This document shows, in pieces, positions 13,191-63,323 of a stretch of 64,000 nt of DNA; position 1 is the stretch's first letter; each line of letters begins with the position of its first letter. The notes below the pieces were generated by a model. That model had not been told where the DNA came from, made no database searches, and was given only the letters and a program-made list of their open reading frames with translations. This DNA is from Niebla homalea (lineage: Eukaryota; Ascomycota; Lecanoromycetes; Lecanorales; Ramalinaceae), in contig JAHGAU010000039.1 in the NCBI GenBank assembly GCA_019925105.1, forward strand, positions 62,001 through 126,000, read 5' to 3'. A program made the translations under genes and the position numbers.

Positions 13191-17310
<4,120 letters not shown>

Positions 17311-33975: not shown

Positions 33976-34459
33976 ATATTAACGGGGGGACGGCTCAAGG
34001 GTCGCCGCTTCTGGCTGGTCCGGACGCCGCTTTTGACAGCCTTTTGGCCGGGTCGTTCCTGGCGAGTCCTTCCACCCTGGTCCCTAGTCCTTAGCAATAA
34101 CCCTACTAGCCCGACGTACAGCTCTCGCCCTTTGTATTCCTGTAATCAATATAATTATCGAAAAGCGTATTGTTACGGTTGGCGTTATACTTCAGTCATA
34201 TAACTCCCTTTTTATTATGCAAGCCTACTTTACTTATACTATGGACCGCCTCTTTTCCTTCGATTAATTAAGCCCAGATCTGGGCTCTTTACGGCCCTGC
34301 TTAAAACCGGCTCCCCCCCTTCTTCTTCCTGCTCCCTCGTTTCACAGCCCAGCATTACCCTCCCCATAGTTTTTATTGCTATTTTCCCTCCTTTATTTTC
34401 GATTATTTACCCTTATTAACTTCGCTTTCCTACCCTCCTCTTTATTACTTATTATTTAT
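33976..34459. other. RIP-spared, GC-richer lead segment upstream of the DUF3435 gene
   Basis: About 480 bp with normal CA/TG content (for example GGCTCAAGGGTCGCCGC near 33992 and CACAGCCCAGCATTACC near 34340) between two heavily RIPed regions. It sits between the apparent insertion edge and the start of recombinase-like coding, where a captain's 5' terminal region and promoter would be. A 70-codon minus-strand open stretch (33885-34097) crosses the boundary into the copia leader and is not a gene. Pyrimidine-rich runs occur at 34310-34340. Confidence 0.6.
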
Positions 34460-36388
34460 ATTACTTAACGTTATAACTACCGAAAGATATATAAAGTATA
34501 TTATAAGATAATTAATAGAATACTATAAATAAATAAAGGTTAAACTAAATATCTTAACCCTTATCTAATATATTATAAAGTAAATAATAAGGATTTATAA
34601 AGCTAAATTAAAAGCTTATAATATAAATAAAAAGGTTTCCTTTACTCCGTTAAGTAAATTAAATAAATTTAATTAACGTCCTTAAATATTATAAATTCAT
34701 AAAGAAAAATCTTTTTATTACCTTTAAAGGTATTTTAATTAACGTTTTTTACGTTTTTTTCAATTAGTTTTTCTCCGTTTAAAAGGATACGTTAAGTACG
34801 GTTAATACCCTATAAATATATAAAAACGTTTTTTATTTAATACGGAAAAAAGAAACGGGTTATTAAATAATTAATCCGCTCATAAAGAACTAGATATACG
34901 GAGTATATCGATCGGCGTTATAATATTAAGTTCTTTATTAACCGGTTATAAGTATAATAATAGCTTATTATTAAATATAATTTATATATAGAGAAAAGGA
35001 AAAAGTTAATTATATATACGGAGGATAAGTTTAAACTCCTTAAAATCTTATTCCTTTCCTTAAAGGTAATATTTAATTATAAACGGTATTATATATAATT
35101 AACTTTAATTATATAATTAATTAAAATTACGGGAAACCAGCCTATTACTTTCCTTACGGTTTATTATAAATATATTAGAATTATTTTATTTATAGATTCT
35201 AACGGAAGAGAACGGCCGTAAATAATATTAAAAATCGTATATTAATATATTAAGGGTTATCTTAATAATAAAAACGCGTTAATAATCCTTATTATACTTA
35301 ATACCCCGTTCCGTTATAATTCTATATAATAACTTATAACCGTAATAAGAATAAATTTAATATTCCCGATATACCGAATAAATTATATTTATTACTTTAT
35401 CTTTATATTACGATATTAATTTTAATCTTTATTAATTAAGCTTTTACCGCCTTTAAATTAATATTAATAAATTAACTATTCCGTCTTTATATTCCTTTAA
35501 AATAGAAATAATTGGAACTTCCGTTTAAAGAAAAGGTATAAAGGGTGCCTATATTTTACCGGTATAAAAGTATAATTTATAAAATATGAATATTAAAGAT
35601 AAAAGCTTTAATTAATATTATTTTCCGCCCATAAATAATCAGCTTAAATAACGTTATTAATATAAAGTTACCGATTAACCTATATACTTTTTAATATAAT
35701 AACGGGGAAGCTTTAAATAATAATAATAAATAGTATATAAATCTCCTATTTAAGAAGTTTATTAATTAATATATAAGCTTTATTATTAAATCGTAATAAA
35801 ACTTAATCTTATAATATTATAATTTTATTATCTTGTAAAAAAATTATATTTTAAGATATATACTTAATATTTAAGTTATTTACCGCGGCTTAAAGTTTTA
35901 AATTATATTAATACGAGTTATTAATAAAATAAGTTAGATAATTAACCCTTAACGTTTTAAATAACTTATAATTATTTAACGAATAAAGGTTTAATAATAC
36001 CTAAAAATAAAATTATTATACCGGAAACTATAATTGTTATAGAAAATTTTTTAAAATTAAAAGAAATTTATCGTTAATATAAAGGGAACGTCCTTTTATT
36101 ATAAATATTAAAACGCTTATTAAACTTATCGTAAAGTTTAATAACGATATAAAAGGGTATTCTTAAAAGAAGTTTAAGTAAAATATAAAATAAAATAGTT
36201 AATAATTAATATTTAACGGTAATTAAAAGGATTATTTATATTAAAAAAGGAAAAAAGGAAGGTAGAAGACTATATCTTTATTAAATAAGTCCGCGTAATT
36301 AATACCTTCTTTATTTTTATTACCGATTCTCCCAAAAAAGAGCGTTTATAATAAATAGTAATTATTAATATATTAATTACCCTATATT
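34460..36388 (+). pseudogene. DUF3435 tyrosine-recombinase ('captain'-type) remnant, first part
   Basis: Plus-strand frame segments match the DUF3435 family of fungal tyrosine recombinases. Near 35670-35730 there is NLYTFQYNNGEALNNN-like sequence where the family has its RRGxxNxL motif. Near 35880-35920 LNIQVIYRGLKFQI corresponds to the 'DVQAIYRGLxP' segment. From about 35940 to 36240 a long helical region ends KEVQVKYKIK, then INIQRQLKGLF, matching the family's 'DIQRQLxG'. (Q is written where the sequence has RIPed TAA.) The gene is interrupted at TTACCCTATATT by LINE-2 and continues at 48708. I could not place the catalytic residues or the start codon. RIP implies other copies existed in the genome. 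Confidence 0.72.
36377..36388. repeat. LINE-2 target-site duplication TTACCCTATATT, left copy
   Basis: Twelve bases repeated exactly at 48708-48719 on the other side of LINE-2. The exact duplicate length is uncertain by a few bases because the tail itself starts with similar sequence. Confidence 0.8.
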
Positions 36389-36410
36389 GATTGATTGATT
36401 CATTGATTTA
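36389..36410 (-). repeat. LINE-2 3' tail of TCAA/TGAA repeats
   Basis: On the minus strand this reads TAAATCAATGAATCAATCAA, the same tail as LINE-1 with one variant unit. The sequence just upstream (CGCCGGAATTAACCTAGC on the minus strand) matches LINE-1 at about 13137. Confidence 0.8.
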
Positions 36411-39400
36411 TATTACGGATCTAGCTAGGTTAATTCCGGCGTTCTTTAATACTCGGTTATTTAACCTTATTAATAACCGTAAAAACCCGATATTTATTAT
36501 ATCGGGAATAAAAACCGGTATTTACTTAACCTTTACTCTTATCTTAAAGGTTAAGAGTATTTATGGCCGTTTAAAAAGTAGGAATTTATTTATACGTTTT
36601 TTTTAAGAAAACCTATAATATTACGATTAAATCTATTTAAGGGTTACCTTTAAACTTATTGTTTTTCCGTTACCTTACGGGTCTATTTAATATTAAAATT
36701 TTAAAATCTTAAATATATTATTAAATATCCTTATTAATACATATATTATTATTATTTTATTTATATAACTTTACCGATTAATATAATATTGCTTTTTATA
36801 CCGCTCCGATATTTATAGCCCCTTTAGCCTTTTTTTAAGTATAGTTTTCCCGCTATTACTTTTTACTTTTAAATCGGTAATAAGGTTTCTTAATTAAATC
36901 TTTAATTATTTTATTTATTTCCTTAATTAAGCTAAATTATAATAATAAGCCCGTAATTATTATAAATTTAATAATTATTTTAATATCCTTTTTATTAATA
37001 AGTATTTAACGATAATTATTAATCCTTACTTTTTAATTAACCTTAATCTAAACTCCTTAAATAGTAAATAAGAAATTAATATATATATAACGTTTTACTT
37101 CCGTTATTTATATTCATAATTAACGTTAATCCGGTTATTAATATATATAATAAAAAAGAAATAAATTAAGCTGTTTTTATTTATTTAAAATTAAATTATT
37201 AATATACTATTATTTTTCCTTATAATCCTATAACGTTAAAGATATTTATTAATAACCTTATTATTATTTAAAGCCGGATATTATTATTTTTAAAGGATTA
37301 ATTCTTTATATTTATATTAACGTTCTGTTTATTTCCTTATAGTTTATAAAGTAATCGCCGTTAATTTTATTTTTACGGCCTTTTTTTCCTCCGCCGTTTT
37401 TACTTTAAGTAAAAGTCCATATACTTTTATGTTAATTTCTTAAACGTAAGTTAAATTAATTTCTTTCTTAATTTACTTTAATTTAATTTTTATAAAAAAA
37501 AGTAAATACCGTTTTTCTACGCCTTTTTATCCGAGGCCTTTTATAATTCTAATAAATACGTTCGTTTTTTATTAACGTAATTAAGTTTATATTTTTTTTA
37601 AGTTTTATTTAAGTAATTATTTAATTAAGGATTAACTTTATTAATAATATAAAAACCTTAAATTCCAGTATCGGGATAGGAATTACTTTATATACTTTAT
37701 TTATTATTCTTAAATATTGGTTTTAAACCTTTTATAATGATTAAACGGGTTCTTTTTTATATTTAAGCGTATTTTTAAATATATATTAAATAGTTACCAC
37801 GTATATTAACGTAAGCTTTATAATTATTTAATAAATGGTTTTAATCTTTTATAAGGTAACTTTTTACGTTAATACCGTAAAATAAATAAAACTTTTTTTA
37901 TATAAAATTATTTTCTTTTAAACCTTTCTTATATAGTCTTTTTAATCTAATTTCTTATTAATTTAAAAGTTAAATATTTTAATATTAATTTCCGGTTTTA
38001 CCGTTATATTATTTAAATTTACTATAATTATTATATTATATAGCTTTAAGCTTTTTATTATATAAATAAGCTTATACTTATATAAGGTAAATTAAGCTTT
38101 ATATATCTTTACTTATCGTAAATAAACTTTATAAGCTTATTTTAACTTTAAATAACTTATATAAATAAACGTATTATAGGCTAAAAAATAAATATTATTA
38201 ATAAAGTCCTTTACTTAAACTTTTTATTTTAATTTTATTAAGTTTTTAATAAGTAAACCGTTAAAAAATAAGAATAAAACCGGGGAGATAAATAACCTTT
38301 AAGGAATCTTTATTATTATAAACTTTATTATATTTATTTTTTATTTTAAATTAATTAATATCGTTTAATTACTTAAGAAACTCTCCGTTTAATTTATAAG
38401 GAAAAATAAGATCCCCTTTTTCTATAAATTATATAATAATCTTTAATAGTTTACTTTATTAAATGCCTTTATAATATTTAAAGAAAAAAAATTTATAATA
38501 TATTTTTTTTATAGCTTTATACCGTATATACGTTATTAATTAAGCCTTTAAAAACCGTTTCCGTTAATTATTTTCTTTTTATTTTTATTTATTAATTAAA
38601 AAATAACTTATATTTTTTTACGTAATTATTTAAGATCTTCATAATTACCGTCTTTAAAACCTTTTTTAACGTATAAAAAAGTATTATAATTTTATATAAT
38701 TTTACCTTTAAGTAATTTAACTTAACCGGCTTTTTAAAAATAATCGTTTTAACCTCCTTAAATTTATAAAGGTAATATCCTATATTAAGGTAAGCTTAAA
38801 ATAAGTAAACAAAAACCTTTTTAAATAATAACGTTATTATAGATAAAAATTTATTTAATATACTATTAAGTTTAAGGGTTTTATCCTTCTTTAATTTATT
38901 AATTACCTTAATTACTATCTTTTAAGTTATTATTTTATCTATTATTATTAATTTAAAATATATAGTACCGTCGATATTTATTAAATTAACTTCCGGTAAC
39001 AGGGGAAAAAATACCCTTTTAAGAACCTTAATTTTATTATTAAAAATGTTTATTACCGTACCGTTTAGTCTTTTTAAGGGTAAAAACTTAAAGATAAATT
39101 TAAGTCTTTTATTCTATTCTTTACCGTATTTTATTAGCTTCTAAATATTATAAAAAGAGACCGCCAAATTATATATTATAGCCCGGAAGTACGTCTATTT
39201 AACCTTCCGGATAATTTTTTCCTTTTTTTTAAGCTTCCTTTAACTATTAAAGCGTCTCCCGGTTTTTATATTTAATAATTTACTTTATAAGTACTTTTAT
39301 TTTTATAATTACTTTTATATATTTCTTATTTTAATAAGTTTTAATTTTCTTAAATAACTTTATTATTAAAATTATTACGTTAATTACTTTATTTAAAGCC

Positions 39401-40850
39401 TTTATTATCCGCTTTATAAAATAATCGATCTATTCCTTATTATTGAACTAAGGGAGCTCCGTTAATTAAAATATTATTTTTACCGCTTTTATAAATACCT
39501 TAACTTCCTTAACCGTCTTTTACGCTTATTTAAACGGTAAAAATAAAGTTACGTTAACGGATTAATTTAAAGTCGTTTATATTAAAACGTAATTTAAACC
39601 GTATTTTAAGTCCTTTTAAGGTCTATATATTATAATTAAGTTAATAATACCTTTTAAGTTAAATATTAAATTAATTATAATTTTAAGTTTATGGCTTTTT
39701 TATATAATAGCCTTTTTTAGCGTTAATAACGTAAAATTAAGTTATATAATAATTATTAATAACTCCTTAAATTCAGTATAATTAATTATATAACCCTCTT
39801 CGTTTTATTAAATATAATAAAGATTAAAATCCCTTATTAAGAAATACTTATTAAATATAATTATAATATCCTTAAGTAACGGGATCGTAAAGGGTTTTTT
39901 CTTATTAACCGGTAATAAATTATACGTATTATAAATATTTAAGTTACCTTTAATATACCCTTTATATATAATCCGGAGCGTATATAAATTCTTTTTATAA
40001 TAAATAATATCTTAACTATTTATATTTAACTTTTTATTAATAAAGAAGTACGTCTATATTATCTTATTACCTTTAAAGGTTAAATAAAAATCCTTTCCCG
40101 GGTTAATTAAAGAGTAAATATACGGATTATATAGCGGTTCTTATATCGTTATAATATTAATATCCTTTACTTCCTTAAATTTAAATATCGGTATTACGGC
40201 TTTAATTATTTCCTTATGTACGTTATATTATATTACCCTTAAAAGCGTAAATATATTAAATATTAACGTCCGTTAAATTCTTTTTATTAACTTTTATTTA
40301 TATAAATAATTTCTTTTTAAAATTAAGTATTATTTATCTTAATCTTTTTATTATAATATTAATCCCGGTTAAGTAATTAACCTTAAAAATTAATATTATT
40401 ATAAGCTTTTTCTTCTTTACGTTATTAATTACCGCGTTTTACCCTTCTCCGTTTAATAAACTCTATTTACGTCTTAAGATCGTTTTTAATTATTTTATTA
40501 ATTTAAATTTATATAAATTATAACGTTAAACTTTAACCGCTATTTTAATTTCTTTATATTAAGTTTCCTTCGCTTTTATTATATACTATAAGTTTTACGT
40601 TAAGTAATTATTATTATTATACGTTACGTATTTTAACGCGTCCTTCGTTAAGCCCTTTATTATTAAGTTAACGTATTTATACGTATTATACCCTTTAATA
40701 TATATCGCGTACTTATACTATTAAAGTACCTCGTAATAATATATCCGTACCCTTAATATTTAAAATATTAATAAATATCCACTGCCCGGTCTTAAAGTCT
40801 CGTTAATTTAAAGGATTTACCCTTTATTACCCCTTTATTAAGGATATCGT
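36411..40850 (-). pseudogene. LINE-2 ORF2 remnant: endonuclease, RT, C-terminal region and 3' UTR
   Basis: Minus strand. The endonuclease catalytic stretch near 39800-39845 reads LIRDFNLYYI (family DFNxHH). The RT entry motif INKLKKDKTLKLN is near 38868-38905, and DFINNIYFLAYNTF near 38170-38215 corresponds to the xxDD box with both Asp now Asn. Spacing of these motifs matches LINE-1. The last several hundred bases toward 36411 are the 3' region. Confidence 0.8.
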
Positions 40851-41410
40851 TATATATCCTTATTAATGTTACGTTTAAGATAACCATAAAGTATCTTTTT
40901 ATATAATTAAAGGCGTCTAATTTCTTTATTATAAAAAGGAAATTATAGTTAATAATCTTTAACTTAAAATAAAAAACCGTATTCTCTTTCTTTATTTACC
41001 TTAAAGTAATTTCCCCTTTTTCCTTTATAAATTTTATTAAGTATATCCCGTTTATTACGATAATAAAGGATTACCTTAATACCTTTACCGTCTTATACCC
41101 TTTCTTACCGGTTTATCCCTTTAATTTCTTTAACTTTTTCTTTACCTTTAATAAAGTTATATTAAGGAAAATATCCTTACTTTATAATTTATATACCGTA
41201 ATAATTTATTTTATTAATAATTCTCCCGTTACCTTAAACGCCTTTATTAATTATAACGGGTTTATTTTTACCGTTATACTTTTTTCCTTTTCGCCCGATA
41301 ATTATATAATTATTATCCTTATTTTTTTTAACGCCGTCGCCTTTTCTTCCGCCCTTATTTCCTTTATCGTTAACTTTAATGCTGCCTTTATAACTTTTAT
41401 TACTTAACTT
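40851..41410 (-). pseudogene. LINE-2 ORF1 remnant, C-terminal part
   Basis: Continuation of ORF1 left of copia B, ending near the ORF1/ORF2 junction. It is Lys/Glu-rich on the minus strand. Individual zinc-knuckle positions were not resolved here. Confidence 0.5.
41406..41410. repeat. Target-site duplication AACTT of copia B, left
   Basis: AACTT precedes the LTR at 41411 and is repeated at 47949-47953 after the LTR ending at 47948. This match sets the 152-bp LTR length. Confidence 0.88.
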
Positions 41411-41562
41411 TCTTAAAATATGAGGTGTAAGTTGCTTAATTATTCTCTATGTATAGAAGTGCGATTAAGTACTCCTGAATCCCGGTTACCTTAATCGGGT
41501 CTAGCTTCGGATTATATTTAATCTACCTGAATACCGGGTAATTAATATAAGTACTTTTAATA
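41411..41562 (-). repeat. 3' LTR of copia B
   Basis: 152 bp, TCTTAAAATATGAGGTGTAA...CTTTTAATA on the plus strand, aligning without gaps to 47797-47948. It retains several TG pairs lost in the other copy. Confidence 0.9.
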
Positions 41563-41571
41563 CTCCCCTTT
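41563..41571 (-). promoter_or_regulatory. Polypurine tract of copia B
   Basis: The minus strand reads AAAGGGGAG directly before the 3' LTR, the plus-strand primer position. Confidence 0.75.
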
Positions 41572-44500
41572 AAGCTTTAATATATATTACTTTTATATTT
41601 ATTTATTTATAATACTATATTTTATTACTTTATTTAAGCTTTAATCTTTATATAACGTATACCTTATTTAAATAATATTTTTTATAAGTTATTAAAGCTC
41701 TTTTATAATAATAATCTTTTATTTTTTTATACTATAGCGGTAATCCTTTTGCGGTAAAATACCTTAAAAGATTATATTTATAGCCCTAAATATATATTAT
41801 TTATTTCTTTAAGTTATAAAGTTAACGCGGTAACGGTAAGCTTCCCTATATCTTAAATTATCCTTTAATAACCCCTTAGGGTACGTAATTTTATCCGGGT
41901 ATATTCCGGGGTAAGTATCGTTTTTTACGATTTACCCCTTTTTTAAAATATTTTTTCAACCTTTTTATTTTATATATTAAATTTATTTTAAAAACGTATT
42001 TTTAGGTTCCTTAGGATTAATAATGGCCTTTTTATAAATAATTAAGAACTCTTTTTATAAATAGTTTAAAGCTTACTTTAAATAACTTAAAAATAAAGCT
42101 ATAAAATTATTAATATTATTAATAAGGCTTTAATTAATATAAGGATATCCTAAGGGTACTTTAAGGTTAAGTACTTTACGGAACCCCTTAAAAAGCTAAT
42201 ATAATAAAGGCTTTATTAAGCCGTTAACGACTTATTTATACGTCGGGATATACTTTAAATTTACTTAATTATCCCTTATAACTTCTTAAAGTTAGTATTA
42301 TTAAATACCTATATACTTAATCCGGGTATAGAATACAGGGTTCTTAATAAAAGCTATAATATTTTGGTTATTTCCGTAAATAATAATAACGGGGAGGTTC
42401 CCGGCTTAATATAGCTTAATTTTATTTAAAAACTATTTAAATTATTAATTAATTACGGTACTTTTTATATTAAATACGTAGCCTATAATAAACCTCCAGA
42501 TTAAGTTTATGGTAAAATCGGAATCGGTATAATTATTAAAAGTTTTTAATTTACTTTTATATATTAATTAAAAATAACGGTAATATAAAAGTAATATAAA
42601 ATTTATTTTATTAACTTTTAATAATACTTAATAAGATTTAAAATATATTAATTAATTATTAAAACGGAATAAGTAATATTTAAATAAGTTTTAAGTATAA
42701 TATATATTAAAGAGCTTATAGTTAATTAATATTTCTTACGGAAAATCGGGTCGGTTTTATAATTTTTAAGTATAAACTTTAATTTATATTTTAACTTTAT
42801 AAAAATATATATAAACGTAATATTTTATTACTTATATTCTTTAATAATTCTTTTTATATAAGTTTTTTAATTAAATCGGAATATTTTATTTTAATGGTTT
42901 CTTATAATTATTATATTTAAATAATAATAAATTAACCTTAAATTAAATATATAGAATTAATTATTAAGTATTTTTTTTAAGGTTATAATACTTTCTTTAA
43001 ATAAGTTAATAATTAAAATATTATTTACGTAAAGAATTATAATTATCTTATTTTCGGGATATATAAATATATAATAATCCGTAAGTATCGGCTTAAATTT
43101 TTATTTCTTTATAAAAGTAAAAAAATAATAATATTATAATTAAAAGGATTATTTTAATCCGTAAAGGATTTTATTAAGTTTATAATATATATTAATACCC
43201 TTTTCTTAATTATAAAATTACTTTATATAAACTTTTTATTTAATTAAATTATATAAAAAGGTTATTTTTATATTTATTTATTTTAGGTTTTAATCGTTAA
43301 CCGTTATTAATATAAAAAGTACTTTATAATTTATAGGTTTAATTATTAAAGTAAAAATTTTATTATAATCGATATTTTCCCGTTATTTATAATTATAGAT
43401 TATTTAATAGGCTTTATACCGAATAATTAAACCGTTATTACCTTTTTTAAGAATATAAACTTATCGTCCCTTTAAAATATTATACTTAAAGGTATTATAT
43501 ATTTAAGTATTAATATTTATATATTATTTTTAATATAAAAATTATATTTATCCTTTTCCGTTAACTATTAATTTATTTTATAATAAATATTTTTTATAAC
43601 TTCTTAATAAGTTTTTAATTTAAATAATTTTAACTTATTCTTAAATAATATTAACGTTAAGTAATAAATATCTTTTTCTTTATTTAAGATAATTATATTA
43701 ATAAAAATAAATAACGGATTTAAGGATATATTTTAAACTTTAAGTATTTAAGAATTTTAAGCTTAAAGTTATTTTAGAGAATATTTTTAATTTCCTTTTA
43801 TAATTTATTAAACTATTATTTATCTTAATCCGAAGGTTATTAAGTTTAAAAATAATTTTTTTATTCTTTAATTAAAAATATATTATTTATAAATATATCG
43901 TTTAAAATATTATCGATAAATATATTATTATGGACTTAATTCTTATAATTCTCCCTTAAAATAGGGATTTATTAAAACTATATATTTTTTTTTAAACGTT
44001 AAATCTTTTCCGCCGGGGTATCCTTATTAAAATTATTTAATAAAGTAATTTTCCGTTCTTTAATATAAATATTAAAAAAACGTTTTACCTTCTTATTAAA
44101 AGTCTGCGTTTAAGGGTTAAAGACTTAATATATCTTAATAGTCTTATTATTATAACTTAAAAATATAAATAAATTAACTTTTTTATTTAAGGAAATCCGG
44201 TATTTTATAATCTTAACTTATATTAATAATTTAATTACTTATAAATATAATAAGTCCGGTTCTTAATTATATTACGCTTAATATAAGGTAATCTTCTTTT
44301 TTAAGTTAAATATAAATTCTTTTATAATAAAGTAATTAATAATTATAACGATTTCTAATTATAAATTTTTAAATAAGTTTATATTATAAATTATTATATA
44401 AGTTTACTCTTTAATTTCCTGGTTAAATTTTTCACTTACGGGATTTTATTTAAAGTTATTTTATATTATTAGTTTATAAATAATACTATAGTTTTTAAAG

Positions 44501-47300: not shown

Positions 47301-47783
47301 AAATCCTTTAAATTATAAAGAGAGTTTAAATTAAGTAGAGATTTCTCGTTATAATTATAAGGTTTTAAGGGTTTAAACTTTAAAAAATTTAATTAAGATT
47401 AAAATTTTTTAATTAAAACTTTTATTAAGGCTCCGCTTAACGCTTTATATTATAGAGCCAAAATTTTTATATATAGCCGGTTTCCGGCATATAAATACCG
47501 GCGTATAATTAACTTATAAGGCTAAGAAATAAGTATTTATATTTTTTAATTAATAAATATATATACCCCGGTAATAATAAGGTTAAGGTATCTTATTCTT
47601 ATAGAATTTTAGATTATTAAGTTATTAATTAACTTTATAGTTTAAAGATCGTAATTTAATAATATTCTTAAGTAGAATATTTTTATTTTTTAAATATATT
47701 TTATATAGTAAAATCTCTATATTTTAATTATAAAATTAAATAAGAAAAAAAGGTATCTTTATAGGGTATCGTTATTGCGAGGC
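47301..47783 (-). other. Copia B untranslated leader
   Basis: Reverse complement of the copia A leader 33511-33975 in its right part. No gene is seen. Confidence 0.6.
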
Positions 47784-47796
47784 CGGGCTTATAACC
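47784..47796 (-). promoter_or_regulatory. Primer-binding site of copia B (half initiator tRNA-Met type)
   Basis: The minus strand reads GGTTATAAGCCCG next to the 5' LTR, identical to the site in copia A. Confidence 0.75.
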
Positions 47797-47948: not shown

Positions 47949-47953
47949 AACTT

Positions 47954-48693: not shown

Positions 48694-48707
48694 TTCCTTA
48701 ATTTCGT

Positions 48708-49080: not shown

Positions 49081-49699
49081 TAGTTACTCTTACGTTTACT
49101 TTACGTAAAGCCTCTTTTAACGGGCTTAATTTTAAGTTTATAATATTATTTAAATTTATAGATAATTTTATCTTAGTTTTAAAAAACTATAATAATGCTA
49201 AAGAATTATTATTAACTTTTATAGTTACTATAATATATAAGTTTAGAAACGGTTACTACCCCCGGTTAATACCCTCGGTTTAACCATTCGACTTCTTTAA
49301 TTAATAAGTAAAAACCTTATACGTATTATACGATTAAAACGATATAGTTTAAAGTTATATAACGATAAGATTTATAGTTAATACGGCTTAGCTTCTTATA
49401 AACAGCCTTATAAGGTTAACCGTAATAAATATAACGATTTAAGTATTTTATACTGCCTATCTTACGTAATTTAAATATATCTCCCTTTATTAATTTTAAA
49501 TTCATCTTAAATACATTTTCTTTATATTTATTAAGAATTAAAATTTTATTTAAATTAAAAAGCTTTTAAAGTTTAATTATAATTATTTAACGTTAATAAA
49601 TATAAGTAAAAACTTTATTCCGTTTAAAAAGATTAATAGTATTTAACGGATTCTTATATACTTTACTTTTAAAGCCCGTATTTTATCGTTATTACTATT
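49081..49699. other. Spacer between recombinase and NLR, no gene recognised
   Basis: RIPed sequence with a few RIP-spared patches (near 49250-49290). It probably contains the recombinase terminator and NLR promoter, but no motif is clear. Confidence 0.4.
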
Positions 49700-53960: not shown

Positions 53961-54229
53961 ATAATTTTATCTTATAATCAGACCGTTTTATCGGTTAATA
54001 TAAAGATAAAAAGTTAATTATTAAGGGAAAATACTATTACGTTAACCCTTACTTATATAACCCTTAAGCGTTTATAATAATAGCTTTAAATCTTTTACTT
54101 TATCGGTAATCTATATATTTAGCTTATTATCTTTTTTTAAAATAGCCGTAAAATTAAAGTTTATTATAAAATAAATATTAATATTAAATAATAAATTTAT
54201 AAGGGCGTTTTATCGATAATCTATTAATT

Positions 54230-54650
54230 ATATAATATAATCCGTTATATATTATAAATTAAAATATATAGCTTTAAATTTTTATTAAGCTTATAAAGTA
54301 ATTTAATTAATATTTAACTTATAATTTATACGTTTACCGGGTTACTTATTATTATTAAAGATTATAATATCGTTATTATTAAGTTTATCGGAAACGCTCT
54401 TAATTAAATATAAAGTTATATAATATATCTTTTACCTCCGGAACGTAAATTTATTAGTTAATAATTACTTAAAAACTTTTACGGCTTATAATAACCTTAA
54501 AAAGCACTTTTATTATAAGTATTTCCGTTATTATTTAAAAGGTTAACTTATTATATGCCTTTATCCCCGGTATAACGTTATACTAACTAACAAAATATAT
54601 TTACAGAATATACGGCGTAGGTATATAAATCTTTTATTTAACGGTAATTA
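54230..54650 (+). pseudogene. Second DUF3435-type C-terminal zinc-finger fragment
   Basis: Around 54430-54620 the frame reads FYLRNVNLLVNNYLKTF, then YNNLKKHFYYKYFRYYLKG, then CLYPRYNVILTNKIYLQN. It is parallel to the C-terminal zinc-finger part at 48820-49050 but not identical, so it is a paralogue rather than a recent copy. The upstream 200 bases stay readable, but I could not align them to the DUF3435 core. Its full gene body is absent; the NLR tail lies directly upstream. It could be the end of another recombinase or of an unrelated zinc-finger protein. Confidence 0.5.
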
Positions 54651-54839
54651 AGCCTTAATTAATAGATTTACGTAACTTATATTTAAGCTCTTATAAATAT
54701 AATAAATAGGATCGTGAATCTTATTATTATATTTATCCTTTTCTCGTACGTTTAATATAAACTTTAAGTCCTATAAACCCTAAACTTTTTAATTCTTTAA
54801 GGTTAATAATAATTAAATAATAATAGCCCTCCTTGCCGT
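54651..54839. other. Spacer, nothing recognised
   Basis: RIPed sequence between the zinc-finger fragment and repeat R1. Confidence 0.4.
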
Positions 54840-55710
54840 TTATTAATATACCTGCTTTATTACGTTATCCGTTACCCTTATAGCCGGGTCGGAGGATTTT
54901 ATATTAAAAAGTATTAAATTAATAAATCGGCTTTATACTTTTTATAGAAAATAGGAAAAATATGATTAAAAATATCTTTTTATTACGATAGAAAATATAT
55001 CCAATATTAAATAATTAGGTTCAGAGTCTAATAGTTATTATTTTTAAATATTAATTTATTATTAATAATAATTTATATACGTTATATTAATTAATTTACC
55101 AAGTAATATTACTTTAAGGGAAGTTTTACCTTTAAGGGAAATTTAGAAAGGTCGTAATAACTAATAAAGCTTTCTTCCCTTAAAGTTATTAATAGGACTA
55201 AAGAAACTTTAAATTTAATATCTGAATATACGTTATAATAATAAATTTATTAACTAAAGACTTAAAGAAAGGAAGGAAATTGCTTTTTTTATATACCGGG
55301 TTTAATATTAAAGGTATCGATCTTTTCTATAAAAAGATTAAATTATATTTAATATTTCCGTTAAAAAACGTTTATAGACCGTAATTATTACGGGATAAAA
55401 GTTAACTTAAGATAATAAGCTTAAGATACTATAAGTCTTAATAAACTTAATATCCTTAAACGATAAGCTTAAAATATTTAATATCTTTAAATAATAAGCT
55501 TAAAATAGAAGTTTAATAAACGTTTCTTAACCCGTTTAAATTAAACTATTAATTTAAACATTAAGTAAGTTTAAACGCTTAGGGGGGTTTAAATAATAGG
55601 AGGACTTAGGTACTTAGGGAGTTTAAATACTTAAAGGGTTTAAATACTTAAGGAGTTTAAATACTCAAAGGGTTTAGATTCTTAAGGGGTTTAAACTTTA
55701 GGAAAGTTTA
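54840..55710 (+). repeat. Segmental repeat R1 (direct partner at 56594-57225)
   Basis: Shares many blocks in the same order with R2: AAATTAATAAATCGGCTTTA, TATACGTTATATTAATTAAT, AAAGCTTTCTTCCCTTAAAG and AATAAACGTTTCTTAACCCG. It ends in 17-bp minisatellite units. R1 has about 240 bp that R2 lacks (around 55200-55480). Confidence 0.8.
55600..55705 (+). repeat. 17-bp minisatellite in R1
   Basis: Imperfect tandem units of the type GGGTTTAAATACTTAAG, about six copies, with variants at the GG/AG and ACTTAA positions. Confidence 0.8.
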
Positions 55711-56593
55711 AATAATAAAATGGTTATTTTTTTTAGCTTATTAGGTTTAATTATATTTCTAGATAACCCTTTTACGTTAACGCGATAATAATTTATAAGG
55801 TATCTTTGATATTAAGGTTAAATATATTAGAATATATAATATATTAATAAGTAAATTAATATATACGTAGAATGTTCCGTTAAACTATTTAATCCGGAAA
55901 TTTAATTATTACGTATTAATTTAATTATTTTAAAGCTTAATCGCTTTATACCTTAAATACCTTAAAGAATTTTCAGACCGTAAGGTTATTTTTTACCTTA
56001 AGGTATTAATAAACCGTACGCTTTATATAAATTTTAAGGTTCATTTTAACCTTAAGGTCCTATAATCCTTAAGGTTTTCAATTCCTTAAGGTTATAAATA
56101 ATAAGGTAAAAACGTCTTAGATTAACGATTTAATATACGGAACCTTAAAACGTAAGGATATAAATTATACTATATAAGTTATAATAAAATCAACCTATAA
56201 CGATTTAAGGCTAATACTAAATATTATTATTAATATTAATTTAGATAGTCTAATTAAGTTAATAATAAATATCCCGTATCTATAAAAGCCGTATTATAGC
56301 TGTTTAATCGAAGAAAATATATATTCTCTTTAACCTTATATTTTCTATATAATAAGAATTCTTAAACCCCGATTTAGAACGTAAATTTCCTTTATATAAA
56401 AAGTCTTTATAAGTAATACTTTTTAATATATAAGACCTATATATATTTCCAATATTTATAATAATTAATAATTTATATTAATACGGAATAATAAAGGTAA
56501 TAGGATGCTTACGTTAAAGCGCTGAATTATTTTAATTTATAACTTCCTATTATACTTCTATTTTTATACCTTTTAAATAATAGGCTTCGCCGC
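55711..56593. other. Spacer between R1 and R2 with a cluster of CCTTAAGG palindromes
   Basis: No gene is recognised. At about 55975-56115 the core CCTTAAGG or its half sites TAAGGT/ACCTTAA recur many times, including TACCTTAAGGTA and AACCTTAAGGTCC. The rest is RIPed AT-rich DNA. Confidence 0.5.
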
Positions 56594-57225
56594 CTATTAA
56601 TATGTTTACTTTATTATATTATTAATTTTTATAATTAACTCGGAGGATATCGCGATAAAAAATATTAAATTAATAAATCGGCTTTAAAATTTCCGTAGGA
56701 AATAAGAAGAATATAATTAAAAATATCCTTTATTATAATAGAAAAATAATTTAATAATAAGTAATCGTATTTAAAGCTATTTTTAAATAATAATTTATTA
56801 TTAATAATTAATATATACGTTATATTAATTAATTTTCTTAAATAATATTAACTTAAAAGCAGCCTTATTTTTAAGGAAAAATTAGAACGGTTATAATGGT
56901 TAATAAAGCTTTCTTCCCTTAAAGTTATTAATAAGTTTAAAAGACTTTAAATTTAAGATGATAAGCTTAAGACCTTTAATTTCTTAAGACAATAAACTTA
57001 AGATAGAAAATTTAATAAACGTTTCTTAACCCGTTTAAACCGAGTTAAAACGCTTATTTCTACGATTATCTAAAGAGGGTTTAAACGTTGGGAGTCTTTA
57101 AATATTAAGAGGATTTAGATATTTAAGGGGTTCAGATACTTAAGGAGTTTAAATACTTAAAAAGTTTAGATATTTAAAGGGGTTTAAACTCCGGGAGGGT
57201 TTGAATATTAAGAGGGTTTAAACGC
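56594..57225 (+). repeat. Segmental repeat R2 (direct partner of R1)
   Basis: Second copy of the R1 unit, including the terminal 17-bp-type minisatellite (about 57070-57225, units such as AGGAGTTTAAATACTTA). Divergence from R1 exceeds simple C/T, G/A change, so the duplication is old or the units evolved separately. Confidence 0.78.
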
Positions 57226-57264
57226 TGGGTATTCTTACTCTTAATACGGATAAAAACAGAAACA

Positions 57265-57402
57265 TTTAATTCTAATACCCTTTAATTTTAGTATGCTTTT
57301 TAATTTTAATATACCCTTTAATTCTGGTATACCCTTTAATTCTAATATACCCTCCAATTCTAATATGCCCTTTAAGTTTAATATACCCTTTAATTCTAAC
57401 AT
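57265..57402 (+). repeat. 18-bp minisatellite
   Basis: Seven tandem units of ACCCTTTAATTCTAATAT (57277-57402), with a partial unit before them at 57265-57276. Variants at positions 1, 4-6 and 13-15 include un-RIPed forms with TG and CA. The length is a multiple of three, but no coding frame is evident. Confidence 0.85.
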
Positions 57403-58439
57403 TTTTATTATTTTATCGGGTTTTACTTAACTTTACTATATATAAACTCGGAGGCTATACCTTAACGTTATATATCTTTAAATAACTATTTATAAATATT
57501 ATTCCGTATAATAAATGCTTTAAGACTTAAATATCTATAGACTTATAATATCTTTTAATGAATATCTTTAGTTTTATAATGTTTTTCGATATTAATTTTA
57601 AACCCTTTTTACGTTATAAAACCTCCTTTCGTATTCTTACGTTTATAATTACGGTATATATTACGGGCATAATTTACGTTTATTCGTTATAATATATATT
57701 TAAATTAATTTATATTACCGTTAATAACTTGGATTATTTTTTAATATATAACGTAATATATATTTATTAATTATATATACCTTTTATAATTCGCTTTATT
57801 AAACCTTTTAGTATTTAATTTTAACTCCTTAAGCTTTAATTTTTACTTCTTTACTTTTCGGCCCTTTTTAAAATAATTCTTAATTTACCGGAAATTAACT
57901 TTAATTCTCCCTTTTCCGTCTTTATTTTAAGTCTTCGTTTATTTACCCTTTTATTTCCTTATAATTTTCTCTTTCACTTACTTCCCTTATTTTCTAAAAA
58001 CCGGACTTTATTTATATTATATAATACCGCTATTATCTTCTCCTTTAATCGCTATATTAAAAATGTTTTTAAGGGCCTTTTTACTTATATATCTTCCTCT
58101 GAAATTTCACTTTTTTATTATATATAATGATAAAATAATTAATTAATACCGTAAATTAATAAGTTACCGCCGATTACTATAAGAGGATTAATTAAAACCG
58201 GTAATTAAGTTTATAAATATTAATATAAGTATTTTTAATAAATAATTAATATTTAAAAATAATTATTATTCCGTACTTTTTAACTTTAAAAATACTTATA
58301 TATTATTAAAAAAGGTTTTCTATTATAATAGGAAAGTTTATTCTTATTATATTGAAATTTCCTCTAGATTATAAGGAAGTTTTTTACTTAATTATTTAAT
58401 TTACGGCTTAAAAACGTATGAATACGGATAGTAACTCTT
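57403..58439. other. RIPed region, possible minus-strand coding remnant, unassigned
   Basis: The minus strand has stretches rich in Lys, Arg and Glu codons (about 57560-58030) that look like degraded coding sequence, but I recognise no domain. Confidence 0.3.
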
Positions 58440-58640
58440 AATATTAAACACGGTTAATAACCTCGGCCTCCTCTATTTATCTCCACCTGCGACGTAGAGA
58501 CATAGCATTATAAGAAGTTTCGTGGAATCTCAAGTTATGACTTATAATTAAGGCGAGATTTTCATGCGTGGGGTCCTTGACTTTTGGTAAAAGAAAGACC
58601 GTTATTTTAAGGGTTATATATAAACCTAGGAACTCTATTG
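58440..58640. other. RIP-spared island
   Basis: About 200 bp with ordinary CA/TG content (for example CATAGCATTATAAGAAG and TTTTCATGCGTGGGGTCC) between RIPed flanks. No ORF or RNA was recognised. It may be single-copy DNA that escaped RIP. Confidence 0.5.
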
Positions 58641-59099
58641 ATAGTTATTATTAGGACCGTTTATAAGCCGGACCTATAATTAACACTTTTTTCCTTCCTC
58701 TATATTTTATATATAACTTAACTTTTCTATTTATCTTTTAAAAATCTCAATTTAAAATAATATTAACGGAGATATCCTAAAGTTTAAAAATACTTACTTT
58801 ATACCTTTATTATATTGGTTAAGCTGCCTTTCTGAAGCTTAATCTCTTTAAAGTTATGGTTATTTAAGTTAAGCTTTTTTAACGTAAAATCCTTAAATTT
58901 ATAATATTTAAAAGATAACCTTTTAAGAGCTCGGTCGTTTTAATAATAATACGTTTTCTGAATAAGTTATTATTTATTATAAATTTTAATTTTTATAAAA
59001 GTTCCTTAAGAAAATAGTTAAATTATTAAAAATAAAATATTAATTATTAAAGCGAAAAGCTTATTACGTTTATTATATAATAGAATTACTTAATATTAA
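58641..59099. other. RIPed spacer, nothing recognised
   Basis: AT-rich sequence without a coherent frame in either direction. Confidence 0.35.
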
Positions 59100-59480
59100 A
59101 ACTTAAGATATAAATCGAATAAAACGGAGGAATAGGAATAATAACTTAAGAATTAAAATTACGGCAGATAAAGGGTATTTAGAAAAGGAGCTTAAAGGGG
59201 ACTTAAAATAAACCGTAGCAATTAAATTAAGGGGAACTAAAATTAAAGCATATATAAAAGAAAAGTAAAAAGCTATAATATTTATTAAAAGTCTCGCTTT
59301 TTTAAATATTTCTTACTTAATTTTTAATATATATAATATCTTATCTTTAAAATAATACTATATCATATATAGTAAAAGTAAAAATTCATTAAATCCTATA
59401 ATAAAAGTAAGCTTTTATTATAGAAGAAAAGATATTTTTAAATGTGAATAAGGAAGGTTATCCGATAAAACCTTTTAGAA
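59100..59480 (+). pseudogene. Short coding remnant of unknown family
   Basis: Around 59150-59290 the plus strand reads KITADKGYLEKELKGDLK, then TVAIKLRGTKIKAYIKEK, then KAIIFIKS, with stops only at TAA/TAG codons. This looks like a RIPed coding segment of about 100 codons, Lys-rich and probably helical. I do not recognise the family. Confidence 0.35.
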
Positions 59481-59629
59481 TATTGGAGTTTTAGCTTTCT
59501 TAACCCTCCCTCCAATATAATTAGTCCATTCGATAAACTATTTATATCCGATATTTACTTATGTCGTTTAACTACTTACGCGCCTTAAATACTTATTTAC
59601 CTTGATTATTTAAAACCTTTGACCGCTTA
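59481..59629. other. Transition from RIPed to RIP-spared sequence
   Basis: CA/TG pairs reappear progressively from about 59500. No feature is recognised. Confidence 0.3.
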
Positions 59630-60180
59630 GCATTTATGATTATTTAAGGCTTTTAACCACCGACGCTGAACGTCTACTTATTCTGCGTGTTCACTCAGAA
59701 TACACGTCCGTCACCTTCATTTACTACCTATCTCCCGTGTTCGCTCCTCATCCAGGTGAACTCAGCTGTGCGGAGAGGAAGGATGCCTTTCGAAGGAACA
59801 ATAAGTTCAATGGCGTGGACGGCTATTGCCGGATACGACACTCCATAATTAACTACTCGTTAATAGCACCCGGCGAGCCATCTCATTCTAAGCCGGGACG
59901 GGGTCTTAATTCCATACCGGATGCTGGGTGTCTAGGAACATATGGCGTACCAGCAAGTAAATTAATATATACGCAGTTACCGGATTACGTAAATGCGATA
60001 AATAATTATTAAATAGCAAAGTAAGGTTAATAATTTATATGGAAATCGCATATAAAAAACCAGAGGTGGTGCGCGGAAAAAATGGATGCCAAGGAATTGC
60101 AAGTAACTTGAAATCACTAAATCCGGGTTAGTTGCTACTGCCATATTTTAGCGTACTTATTTTAATCACCCCTCGTCCTC
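59630..60180. other. Largest RIP-spared island, about 550 bp
   Basis: Normal base composition with abundant CA and TG, unlike all surrounding DNA. It contains the longest open frame of the window (59737-60012) and ends near the CACCCCTCGTCC stretch at 60170. It is probably unique sequence in the genome, or sequence gained after RIP. Confidence 0.65.
59737..60012 (+). CDS. 91-codon open frame in the RIP-spared island, doubtful gene
   Basis: Begins MFAPHPGELSCAERKDAF and ends LPDYVNAINNY. It is the longest ORF in 64 kb and lies wholly inside un-RIPed DNA. It contains three Cys, no signal peptide (the N-terminus is not hydrophobic) and no membrane segment. No family is recognised. It may simply be chance in sequence that lacks RIP stops. 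Its 3' quarter drifts into AT-rich DNA. It has no upstream neighbour that would suggest an operon or shared promoter. Confidence 0.25.
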   Translation: MFAPHPGELSCAERKDAFRRNNKFNGVDGYCRIRHSIINYSLIAPGEPSHSKPGRGLNSIPDAGCLGTYGVPASKLIYTQLPDYVNAINNY

Positions 60181-60559
60181 TCTTATCCTATATTTTATCC
60201 TTCTGTCCATCTTCGATAATTTTATATTAATTAATCGATACAGCCTTTTATTAAGTAAAATTAAATACTTAAAAGCTAGGCGTTAACCCTTATTAAGAAA
60301 AGATTTTAGTAAGTTATTTATTAATAGGTTTAATCTAATACCGGTCTATTTCTATGATCTTTCCTTAAAGCTTACAATTTAAACTTATAAATATAATAAA
60401 TAAAATAGTATAAATAATTATCGCGGTTTACTTTTTTTTTCTTTTTCTTTTAGATTATTCTTACTTATTTTATATTAGATTAAGGCGGGTTATATTTTCT
60501 TTAAATAAGTATACTTTAAACCGAATAAGTATATATATTTATTAACGGGCGCTACGTAA
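60181..60559. other. RIPed spacer, nothing recognised
   Basis: AT-rich with a long pyrimidine run at 60431-60451. It is probably the 3' flank of the kinase gene. Confidence 0.35.
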
Positions 60560-63250
60560 TCCTTTATTAAGAAATATTTAATCCGATTATCATTATTATC
60601 TTTTTCCCTATAAAGTATTACGTGAAATATACTTTATATACTTTTTAAATTCCTATTATTGAGCTTAACCGTATTTTTTACGGGAAGAGATATAATTTTC
60701 TTTTATTCCTTAATTTACTTATAACTTATAATCGTTAAGCGTATATTAATATATAAGAAGTCTTTTTTAATTGTAATTAACTAAACTACCGGTAAACGGA
60801 TTAAATTAACCCTTAATTATATATTAATTACGTTTTAGTTTGGATATTCCCGTATAACGTATTATCCAGATTTCTTAGTAATATTATATTAATTTAATAA
60901 CGCTTTTATTCTAATAATTACTTAACTATAAAAATACGTTTTATCGTTATTTAATATATAGAAAGACGGAGTAAAAAATATTCTTTAATTAGAAAGGAGG
61001 TTAATATATCTCCGTTATTATTAATTACTTTATATTATCGATTTCCTTTAAAAACCTCCTTAATAAGATTTATCTTACATATAATAATTAATATTAAATA
61101 AATATAAAATAGCTTAAAACGTTAATATAATCCAGAAACGCTAATAAATAAGTTAAATTATACTGGTAAGCGGTTAAGATTAATATATAATTATAAATAT
61201 TATTGATTATTTAGCTTTAAGAATAATTATTTTCTTTTTTAATATATACCCGGAGAATAAAGTCGTTTATTAATACCGTCGGTATACTTATTAATTAAGG
61301 TTTTTATAATTATATTACGTAAAGGAGACGTACCGTTAAGTTAATAATAGAGCTCGTTAGTTCGGAAGGGGTTAAGTTAATAAATATAATCTCTTAATAG
61401 TTTAAATAAATCGCGACGATAACTTAATTAAAGAGGTTATTCTGAGTAAGTTTTATCTTGGTGATCTTTAACCGGGCTAAATATTTATTAAGCTCTCCTA
61501 TTAAGGTATTAATGTAATCGTCTTTATTAATATTTTGACTTTTATTCCTTATAATATCCGTTAAGAGCGTAAGGATAATATCGTATATTATATTATATAG
61601 AATTAATTTAATTTATTATTATATCTTAAACGCCGGTTTAATATTTTAAAAATATAAGAGATAAAAACCTCTATGAAACGTTTAATCCGCTTATTCTCGG
61701 AAAAATTATTTATTAAGCCGATAACCAAAGATTATTATCGTTTATATCCTCCTAAATATACCGACCTAGCCTTAAAAAAACATAAGAGGTCTGCTGGTAA
61801 TTAAACGTTATTACTTAAATAGTTAAGGGTAGTTTTAAAGCTTCTTATTTATAAGCCGTAACTATATTTATTACTTAAAGGGTATAAGGCTTAAAAATTA
61901 TAAGACTTTAGAATTCCAGAAGTTTAATTGGGGGTATAATGTCTTATTCGGCTATTATTATTATAATTTAAATTCTTCTCCTCAGTATCTTAAAGAGCGC
62001 TTAATAAAATAGTAATAAAGCTATCGTTATCGTTAATTTTATCTTAAAGAGCCGTTTACCGTATTATTATAATACTTCCCAAGTTAATAAAATAACCGTT
62101 AAAAAGCCCCAAATCGCATCCTTTTATTAAGTAAATATTTATAAAGAGCCGCTTTTTGGGCCTTATCCGTAATATTTTAATAATAAGAAGATTTATTAGG
62201 GTATCTAAGTCTTAATCATTGGTATAATTAATAATACGCTGGTATTAAGTAAGGCCCTAATTTTTTAACGTTAATTACGGATTTTTCTGCTATTTATATT
62301 TCCGTTTAATTACTTTGAAAAGCTTATATATATATTATAATATAATTACTCTTAATAATTATAAATTTATTAAGGCGGTATACTTTTTCTTTAAGTAAAC
62401 CTTAAGCGTAATATAAAGTTAAGTATTATAAAGAGTTCTTAAGTCGGGCTTATCGTTTATAAGGCCGAAATTAATAAACTTAATACTTAAAAAAGATTGG
62501 GATTTAATTAAGATATTTTCCGGCTTTAAGTCTTAATATATTACGTTACGGGGATATAAATATTTAAGTATATTAAGGGCCCAAAAAAATAAATCTATAG
62601 TTTCTTTTATAATAATAAGGCTTTCGCTATATAGATCCTTTAGATTTCCGAGAAGAAAATAAGATATTATTAAAAAAAGTAGAAGGTTTTCTCGGAAATC
62701 TATAATTTAAACGGTATTTTCCTTTTTAACGGTTAGATTCTATTTAATCCACACGGATAATTATGCTTATATATGGATTCTCCCTTATAATACGGATCTC
62801 TCTGCGGATTTACTTTAATTAGTTTTTTTTCTGTTATTTCCTACGTTTTTTGCCCTTTTTTTTATTAAGGTTTATAAAATTCCTTACGGGCGTATATCGC
62901 GTTAGTACTTACGTTAATAACTTTATTTACTCCTCTGAATAAGTTATTTTTAAGATTCCGTTTATAAATATAAATAAAAAGTTACCTAAGAATAAAGGGT
63001 TAACTAGGCTATACGGTAATTAAGTGGCTATCGATCTTAAGTACGTTAAGCGGAGGAAGAGCTATATAATTATTTTTAAGAAACTTTTTTATTTTTTCGT
63101 TATATTTAACTTTATATATTTTATAATTAATTAACTCAACCTTAAAGTTAAGCCCCTAAGTATAAACCTTAAGTTCTTATTTCTTTTCCTCCTTTTTTAG
63201 GTTTAGAATCCAAGTAAAATAATACTATATTTCCTTTTTTATTTAACCGC
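60560..63250 (-). pseudogene. Serine/threonine protein kinase pseudogene with an APSES/KilA-N-like C-terminal region
   Basis: Minus strand. The catalytic loop near 62510-62550 reads NVIYQDLKPENIL (family HRDLKPENIL; Q is a RIPed TAA). Near 62430-62480 INFGLINDKPDLRTLYNT corresponds to DFG and the activation segment. Near 62570-62650 LGNLKDLYSESLIIIKETID matches the lobe linker region. The N-lobe lies toward 63250, where Lys/Arg-rich and RREIRIIREN-type readings occur. Toward the C-terminus, near 60770-60880, VIRYTGISKLKRNQ-like and FNPFTGSLVNYN readings resemble the DNA-binding APSES/KilA-N fold, seen in some fungal accessory kinases. The role is unknown; the combination suggests signalling to DNA. 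All breaks are RIP-type. Confidence 0.75.
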
Positions 63251-63323
63251 TATAATTAATAACCGTTTTATTTATTAACGAATCCCTTAATATAAAATAC
63301 TTTTCATTATCAATAATATTATT

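What the first reader, a model, noticed from the sequence alone, without database searches (positions are those of the whole stretch)
33976..63323. Buried Starship-like element: DUF3435 captain at the edge, NLR and kinase cargo
A DUF3435 recombinase pseudogene starts about 0.5 kb inside an abrupt break in copia A and points inward. It is followed by an NLR, a second DUF3435-type zinc-finger fragment and a kinase. That order (captain first, immunity-type cargo behind) is the Starship plan. Finding one fossilised by RIP, jumped into by a LINE and seated inside a copia nest would show how cargo elements decay inside heterochromatin.
Basis: partly seen in the sequence, partly recalled or inferred. 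Interest (0 to 1): 0.88.

Follow-up and report, generated by a model that had tools for sequence, protein, structure and literature searches.

The report
Fossil Starship transposon in AT-rich DNA
The window holds the first part of a dead, 137,000-base "Starship" (a giant fungal jumping element that carries passenger genes), sitting inside an older retrotransposon with both of its ends still readable; it is a well-preserved example of a known kind of element, probably from a lichen-type fungus.

Summary
A RIP-damaged DUF3435 "captain" (matched 34666-36342, +) lies 0.7 kb inside a sharp break in a Copia element at 33975. The same Copia resumes 106.8 kb beyond the window (window-relative 170788) at the same Copia position, with TTTATAA on both sides. 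The insert is 136,805 bp (33983-170787) with terminal inverted repeats, the right one RIP-altered. The motif CGGGGGGACGGC marks 23 ends by my reading in this genome, including five further end pairs of 49-158 kb; three of those (C5, C14, C21) also interrupt other repeats with a 7-bp core. Captain plus NLR recur on C5 and C18. NACHT-WD40 NLR, kinase (minus strand) and a second captain's zinc-finger fragment are confirmed. A second captain and an un-RIPed CHAT-domain region lie in the same insert outside the window. A LINE-like repeat cut the captain gene, and a Copia cut that repeat. At 63323 another LTR-type repeat starts; it is not the end. All Starship criteria that I could test are met. Novelty: new, fossil member of a known kind; its ends suggest core exchange and perhaps a preference for RIP-made DNA.

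The parts
33346..33975 (+). Left piece of the Copia-family element (family B) into which the Starship inserted; it reads as the reverse complement of the copy at 41411-47948
   Evidence: 86% identical to 47950-47313 (rc), 83% to the full copy at w79251-79884; RVT_2 of the copy at 41411-47948 lies on minus, so this piece is +
33969..33975 (+). Left copy of the target core TTTATAA (right copy at window-relative 170788-170794)
   Evidence: unbroken Copia copies read TTTATAATTTAAAGG here
33976..33982 (+). 7-base AT spacer between core and inverted repeat (ATATTAA; most other left ends read similarly, ending in TTAA)
   Evidence: on C5 the repeat into which it is inserted stops right before this spacer
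33983..33994 (+). Left terminal inverted repeat CGGGGGGACGGC; the right end (w170776-170787) reads CGGAAAGATAAT in reverse complement
33983..64000 (+). Part of the Starship inside the window; the element continues to window-relative 170787 (C39:232787), 136,805 bp in all
34666..36342 (+). Captain: DUF3435 tyrosine recombinase pseudogene, 44 stops in the three matched stretches
   Evidence: PF11917; tblastn E 6e-59 to P0002; stop counts 5, 4, 35
48819..49033 (+). Probable 3' part of the same captain gene, cut off from the rest by the LINE-like repeat
   Evidence: 74% DNA identity to the stretch after the captain core in L003; in C18 and C5 the matches to 36387 and from 48711 overlap by 8 bp
36389..48707 (.). 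Later LINE-like repeat in the captain gene, itself split by a Copia at 41411-47948; TTACCCTATATT on both sides (36377-36388, 48708-48719)
   Evidence: no Pfam domain on either strand of 36384-41410
41411..47948 (-). Complete Copia-family LTR element (152-bp LTRs, AACTT on both sides) inserted in the LINE-like repeat; one of the paralogous empty sites
50816..51280 (+). NACHT domain of a decayed NLR (cargo)
   Evidence: NPHP3_N E 8.5e-4, below the curated cut-off; 12 stops
52527..53690 (+). WD40 repeat array of the same NLR, 126-bp (42-aa) tandem units
   Evidence: self-BLAST offsets in steps of 126 bp; WD40 models E 2.5e-9 and weaker
54427..54609 (+). C2H2 zinc-finger end of a second captain-type gene
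   Evidence: tblastn E 1.8e-12 to P0005 residues 588-648; 76-82% DNA identity to the stretch after sister captains
62146..62733 (-). Protein kinase fragment (cargo), 10 stops
   Evidence: Pkinase E 2.1e-10
63323..64000 (.). Start of another LTR-type repeat family inside the Starship (not the element's end)
   Evidence: 87.6% to 17310-17982 and copies right of the window

Best explanation
This is the first 30 kb of a 136.8-kb fossil Starship. A DUF3435 tyrosine recombinase encoded at the element's left end once moved it, with an NLR and other cargo, into the sequence TTTATAA of an existing Copia element (shown: borders, repeats, captain position, unbroken Copia copies; inferred: the recombinase did it). 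Relatives landed in other repeats. RIP then mutated the repeated parts, killing captain and NLR, while a single-copy CHAT-domain region stayed free of RIP. A LINE-like repeat later split the captain, a Copia split that repeat, and other LTR elements inflated the insert. Mechanism (inferred from the junctions): core exchange. The element carries its own core TTTATA beside its right arm (..CCGTCCCCCCG-TTTATA) and a spacer beside its left arm (AWTTTAA-CGGGGGGACGG..). It recombines with a similar 7-bp core in the target; the right junction then shows the element's core and the left junction the target's. In C5 and C21 the left core equals the unbroken target (TTAATAA; TATATAA) while the right core is TTTATAA, differing by one transversion, which RIP does not make.
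For: Copia break at 33975 and resumption at w170788 at the same Copia position with TTTATAA on both sides. Unbroken Copia copies: two in the contig and eight elsewhere whose left-flank and right-flank matches overlap by 7-12 bp (8 of the 19 left-flank-only matches; the other 11 have no partner's capped list). Left end shared with C5, C18 and others. Motif CGGGGGGACGGC: 27 sites against 5 for the reversed control; 23 judged ends by flank, 4 judged chance. Sites of other pairs resolved against the 250 kb: C5 in 6 unbroken repeats, C21 in 5, C14 in 1, always 7 bp of overlap; C1 and C16 unresolved. TTTATA follows all 7 intact right ends and the window's. Captain. Same cargo order on C5 and C18. 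In captain transversions the window differs from C5 by 0.2%, C18 1.6%, C10 1.8%. RIP.
Against: The right inverted repeat is degraded (CGGAAAGATAAT) and fits the motif only if C/T and G/A are taken as equal. Right-end similarity to relatives is 64-78% and none of the matches reaches the last bases. The two core copies differ by one base in C5 and C21 and in the seventh base in C14; I read this as core exchange, but it is weaker than a perfect duplication. Outside the captain core transversions are higher (C39-C5 25 of 920 and 42 of 2300; C39-C18 32 of 1019 and 101 of 4454), so the copies are not simply one element plus RIP. Pairs of ends were joined by orientation on the same contig; genome-wide only the motif's exact form was searched. 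A rearrangement inside 137 kb cannot be excluded. No isolate comparison, no active copy.
Confidence: 0.95

Rival explanations
1. Chance neighbours: a relic DUF3435 gene, an NLR and a kinase that independently ended up in a repeat nest; there is no single element.
For: The region is full of nested repeats and broken genes; 34 DUF3435 matches occur genome-wide.
Against: The same left end, captain and NLR order recur on C5 and C18; the Copia halves meet at the same coordinate with a 7-bp core.
Confidence: 0.03
2. A small Crypton-like tyrosine-recombinase element; the NLR and the rest are host DNA or other repeats that only lie beside it.
For: Cryptons also use this recombinase class (recalled); the captain is close to one end.
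Against: The only place in 250 kb matched by all four relatives' right ends is w169795-170728. End pairs elsewhere enclose 49-158 kb. The NLR travels with the captain.
Confidence: 0.02
3. The copies on C5 and C18 arose by segmental duplication, not by transposition.
For: Long collinear stretches at about 80-86% identity. The BLAST match on C5 starts 60 bases outside the motif, and C5 and the window score second-highest of 120 flank pairs (19; best 20).
Against: The C5 flank is a different repeat: 1052 of its 1059 bases match copies such as w71472-72524, and both sides of C5 fit the same unbroken copies with 7 bp of overlap. The window's flank is the Copia.
Confidence: 0.03
4. The insert is two Starships: a clade-1 element with a clade-2 element (captain on minus at w149501-152079) nested in it.
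For: The second captain belongs to the clade of C16, C1, C14, C8, C32 and C30 (13.1% transversions from the window captain, 0.4% from C16).
Against: No second end was recognised: a RIP-tolerant pattern gave three more weak matches (w10652, w88626, w148700) that agree with real ends in 21-30 of 40 bases when C/T and A/G are equated, against 33-39 among real ends. Where its left end should be lies the CHAT region.
Confidence: 0.35

Closest known systems
Starship giant transposons (captain = DUF3435 tyrosine recombinase)
   Same: First gene is a DUF3435 recombinase at the 5' end reading inward; direct repeats and asymmetric inverted repeats at the ends; large size; cargo; RIP damage and nesting also reported (definition and RIP-hit examples in passages of PMC12257634; nesting in passages of PMC12289983). 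NLRs as frequent Starship cargo is recalled
   Different: The copies whose letters I compared (C5, C18) are RIP-damaged too; core TTTATAA (CCCTA, TTTACT and ATTAC are given for other Starships in PMC12257634); host probably a lecanoromycete
Frontier, and Limos in Fusarium falciforme (RIP-hit Starships)
   Same: Starships whose captain or ends carry RIP-type transitions (passages of PMC12257634)
   Different: Here cargo is down to 21-24% G+C and a retroelement has split the captain
Captains of Lecanoromycetes (Teloschistes, Heterodermia, Psora, Xanthomendoza; P0002-P0007)
   Same: DUF3435; P0002 and P0005 also keep a C2H2-like end; 42-58% identity over 39-46% of the query, which was the C16 sister, not the window captain
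   Different: Annotated proteins of other species; their elements were not examined
NACHT-WD40 fungal NLRs (HET-E/HET-D type; names recalled)
   Same: NACHT followed by 42-aa WD40 repeats in a tandem array
   Different: No N-terminal effector domain recognised; decayed by RIP

Membership tests
Starship | DUF3435 tyrosine recombinase encoded as the first gene, at one end, reading inward | tested here: met
   Captain matched from 34666, left end 33983; no other Pfam domain in the three + frames of 33976-37400 (minus frames there not scanned). This copy is dead: 44 stops, and the arginine of the ITGNR motif reads Q (that it is catalytic is recalled)
Starship | Direct repeat at both borders | tested here: met
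   TTTATAA at 33969-33975 and w170788-170794
Starship | Terminal inverted repeats | tested here: met
   CGGGGGGACGGC left; right end RIP-altered here but intact in C1, C5, C14, C15, C16, C21 and C31
Starship | Large element with non-transposition cargo | tested here: met
   136.8 kb; NLR, kinase, CHAT domain; 54.8 kb of it matches other places within the 250 kb
Starship | Insertion boundary verified by an empty site | tested here: met
   Paralogous only: two plus eight unbroken Copia copies; C5, C14 and C21 likewise in other repeats
Starship | Presence/absence between isolates | not testable with these tools
   One assembly of the species held
Starship | Captain places in a named captain family by phylogeny | not tested
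   No named captain sequences were fetched; two captain clades in this genome were separated
Crypton | Short element with recombinase and no cargo (recalled) | tested here: not met
   Ends enclose 136.8 kb

The most novel reading that the evidence does not exclude
This Starship family moves by exchange of a loose AT core: it carries its own TTTATA at the right arm and accepts 7-bp AT targets, which makes RIP-damaged repeats its natural landing ground. RIP would then both create the target and kill the element, so landing pad and graveyard are the same place; and two captain clades (12.7-14.1% transversions between the window captain and the other clade) share the same ends and could have moved each other's elements. 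Four of four resolved sites (window, C5, C14, C21) lie in other repeats, though only sites in repeats present in my 250 kb could be resolved. TTTATAA (either strand) occurs 5.1 times per kb in the window and 0 times in two un-RIPed stretches of 3.6 and 3.3 kb; 21 of 22 end flanks have G+C of 0.30 or less. RIP spreading into flanks after insertion could explain part of this, and no genome-wide baseline was measured. I raised this from 0.30 to 0.35.
Probability: 0.35. Interest if true: 0.65.

Novelty: new member of a known kind. Interest (0 to 1): 0.54.

Why it matters
It gives a complete record, ordered by nesting, of how a cargo transposon dies: insertion into a retroelement, RIP of the repeated parts, survival of a single-copy cargo region, then retroelement jumps into the captain. 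The readable ends (12-bp inverted repeat, AT spacer, 7-bp core) turn a repeat-nest puzzle into a searchable family with six end pairs in one genome, and unbroken target copies show which core came from the element and which from the target. I found no Starship report from lichen-forming fungi in the open-licence library, which holds no preprints.

Tried and rejected
Rejected: the right edge at 63323 (an LTR-type repeat starts there). Rejected: reading the stretch right of w171657 as the same Copia; it is a related Copia-like family inserted there. Rejected: 4 of 27 exact motif sites (C6, C7, C17, C36) as chance, by their G+C-rich flanks without the AT spacer. Looked for further ends inside the 250 kb: three weak pattern matches (w10652, w88626, w148700) agreed with real ends less well than real ends agree with one another and were taken as chance. 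The C21 right-end query also matched many AT-rich places elsewhere in the contig, in its first 400 bases (one match at 421-519). Looked for the right inverted repeat of C18, C10, C48, C34 and C4 with a RIP-tolerant pattern and found it in none of the five. Thought that C39:443770 and C20:34249 might be miniature elements; they go on sharing sequence with the window element, so that was dropped. Suspected that C5 sits in the same Copia because its flank resembled the window's; it sits in another repeat. No unbroken site found for C1 or C16 within the 250 kb. Domain scans of the LINE-like repeat gave nothing on either strand. The host species was not identified: 6 of 7 captain relatives bear names, and the three species looked up are Lecanoromycetes; that these are lichen fungi is recalled.
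Full report
COORDINATES. The window is C39:62001-126000 of an unnamed 50.57-Mb, 52-contig genome. I fetched C39:1-250000 apart from the window itself (joined). 'w' means window-relative position (C39 position minus 62000), also outside 1-64000.

OBSERVATION. The window has 22% G+C and no frame of 120 aa or more starting with ATG, GTG or TTG; two stop-to-stop frames reach 144 and 129 aa. The RIP indices are extreme: TpA/ApT 1.34 and (CpA+TpG)/(ApC+GpT) 0.17. DUF3435 (PF11917) matches in two + frames (E 1.3e-16 and 1.7e-7), and tblastn with P0002 places the gene at w34666-36342 (E 6e-59). NACHT (w50816-51280, E 8.5e-4) and WD40 (w52556-53446, best E 2.5e-9), both under curated cut-offs, lie in one + frame; the WD40 part is an array of 126-bp units. 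A C2H2 zinc-finger fragment of another captain lies at w54427-54609 (E 1.8e-12). A kinase fragment lies at w62146-62733 on minus (E 2.1e-10).

LEFT AND RIGHT ENDS. w33346-33975 matches two complete copies of a Copia family, w41411-47948 (reverse) and w79251-85860; the first carries RVT_2 (E 1.7e-17). The match stops at w33975. The same family resumes at w170788 and runs to about w171657, where a related element is inserted. At base level the left side reads CTTTATAA|ATATTAA|CGGGGGGACGGC and the right side TTATCTTTCCG|TTTATAATTTGAAGG, while unbroken copies read TTTATAATTTAAAGG. TTTATAA therefore stands on both sides of an insert of 136,805 bp (w33983-170787). Eight further Copia copies (C17, two on C21, C44, C5, C29, C2, C6) appear in both the left-flank search (19 such matches) and the right-flank search with the two matches overlapping by 7-12 bp, so they are unbroken there. 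Each of these two searches scored only 40 of its candidates, of 115 and 370.

OTHER COPIES. The stretch from the left end through the captain matches C5:1238294-1240747 (82%) and C18:246438-248864 (81%), and less completely C10, another place on C39, C20, C23 and others. The stretch from w48711 on follows directly in C5 and C18, without the LINE-like repeat, and includes the NLR, on C5 split by an insertion. Right ends of relatives on C1, C14, C21 and C15 read GCCGTCCCCCCG|TTTATA, the reverse complement of the left motif. The exact motif CGGGGGGACGGC has 27 sites, against 5 for the motif read backwards. By flank, 4 are chance (C6, C7, C17, C36) and 23 are ends: 16 left, 7 right. TTTATA follows 7 of 7 intact right ends and also the window's; TTTATAA precedes the spacer at 7 of 16 left ends. 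End pairs, joined by orientation: C1 54.7 kb, C14 48.9 kb, C5 58.9 kb, C16 52.9 kb, C21 158 kb, and this one. The two cores agree over 7 bp in C1, C16 and here and over 6 bp in C14; C5 and C21 differ at one base.

TARGETS AND CORE EXCHANGE. Comparing 112-120 flank bases of the five other pairs with the 250 kb, both sides of C5 fit six unbroken repeats, C21 five and C14 one, with 7 bp of overlap each time; C1 and C16 gave none. C5's flank is the repeat family at w66496 and elsewhere, not the Copia. For C5 the unbroken sites read TTAATAA (6 of 6), the left core TTAATAA and the right core TTTATAA; for C21 the unbroken sites read TATATAA or TATATAG, the left core TATATAA and the right TTTATAA. In both the right core departs from the target by a transversion towards TTTATA. 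The simplest reading is that the right core comes with the element and the left core is the target's, as in core exchange by a tyrosine recombinase. In C14 the cores are TTTATAA and TTTATAT and the one unbroken copy reads CTTACGT, which RIP could turn into TTTATAT; this neither supports nor opposes a 6-bp core clearly. The window's own target was TTTATAA, so it is uninformative on this point.

WHAT HAPPENED. In transversions only, the window captain differs from C5 by 0.2%, C18 by 1.6% and C10 by 1.8%, and from C1, C14, C8, C32, C30, C16 and the second captain by 12.7-14.1%. Outside the captain core, C39 and C5 differ by 365 transitions and 42 transversions over 2300 bases, and C39 and C18 by 659 and 101 over 4454; at the left ends by 112 and 25 over 920 and by 131 and 32 over 1019. 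Most change is RIP-type, on top of some older divergence. The LINE-like repeat (w36389-48707) lies in the captain gene with TTACCCTATATT on both sides; the Copia in it has AACTT on both sides. 54.8 kb of the insert matches other places within the 250 kb at 75% or more over 300 bp or more. A region with a CHAT domain (E 1.2e-10) lies in an un-RIPed island at w152190-155600; whether its gene is intact is open, since the pieces lie in different frames. Beside it lies a second captain on minus (w149501-152079) that groups with C16. Apart from its last 135 or so bases the island has no other listed match in the genome (40 of 92 candidates scored), which fits RIP hitting repeats only.

COMPARISON. 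PMC12257634 (passages) gives the Starship definition used here (DUF3435 first gene, direct repeats, asymmetric inverted repeats) and reports RIP-hit Starships. PMC12289983 (passages) reports nested Starships, and that most TEs in Starship regions of Verticillium dahliae lack a RIP signature. PMC12134995 (passages) mentions likely RIP in Gaeumannomyces elements. One search listed all 20 papers holding three of its five terms; one search listed 20 of 132; one search listed 10 of 227, none of the ten with the word Starship. Two papers of the list that hold both Starship and Lecanoromycetes were checked by passages, which report no Starship from that class. One search found 23 papers with two of its three terms and none with TTTATAA. 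The library holds only open-licence papers and no preprints, so absence here is weak.

VERDICT. Supported, with the right limit corrected. It is a new, fossil member of a known kind, with unusually legible ends.

Noticed in passing
w152190-155600 (L025:4190-7600): An un-RIPed region with a CHAT domain and a cysteine-rich end sits at about 50% G+C inside 20% G+C DNA; its last 135 or so bases are a high-copy, little-mutated short repeat found on many contigs.
   Followed up: partly
L053 (C10:902733-902892): The left end on C10 directly follows what looks like another element's right end (GCCGGAAAGCGCT...CCGTCCCCG), so two Starships seem to lie head to tail there.
   Followed up: no
C16:212557-213876 (L007): A DUF3435 gene matched in three pieces without stops inside, in G+C-rich DNA with no TTTATAA in 3.6 kb; possibly a younger Starship.
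   Followed up: no
w149501-152079: Second, near full-length captain on minus, of the other captain clade, without recognisable ends.
   Followed up: partly
C39:443770-448900 and C20:34249-28801: Two further elements (and C23) share a junction that skips window cargo of about 49250-58180; the first two continue into sequence like w139887-137981 reversed.
   Followed up: partly
w59623-60009: A stop-free frame of 129 aa in a 42% G+C island inside the decayed cargo.
   Followed up: no
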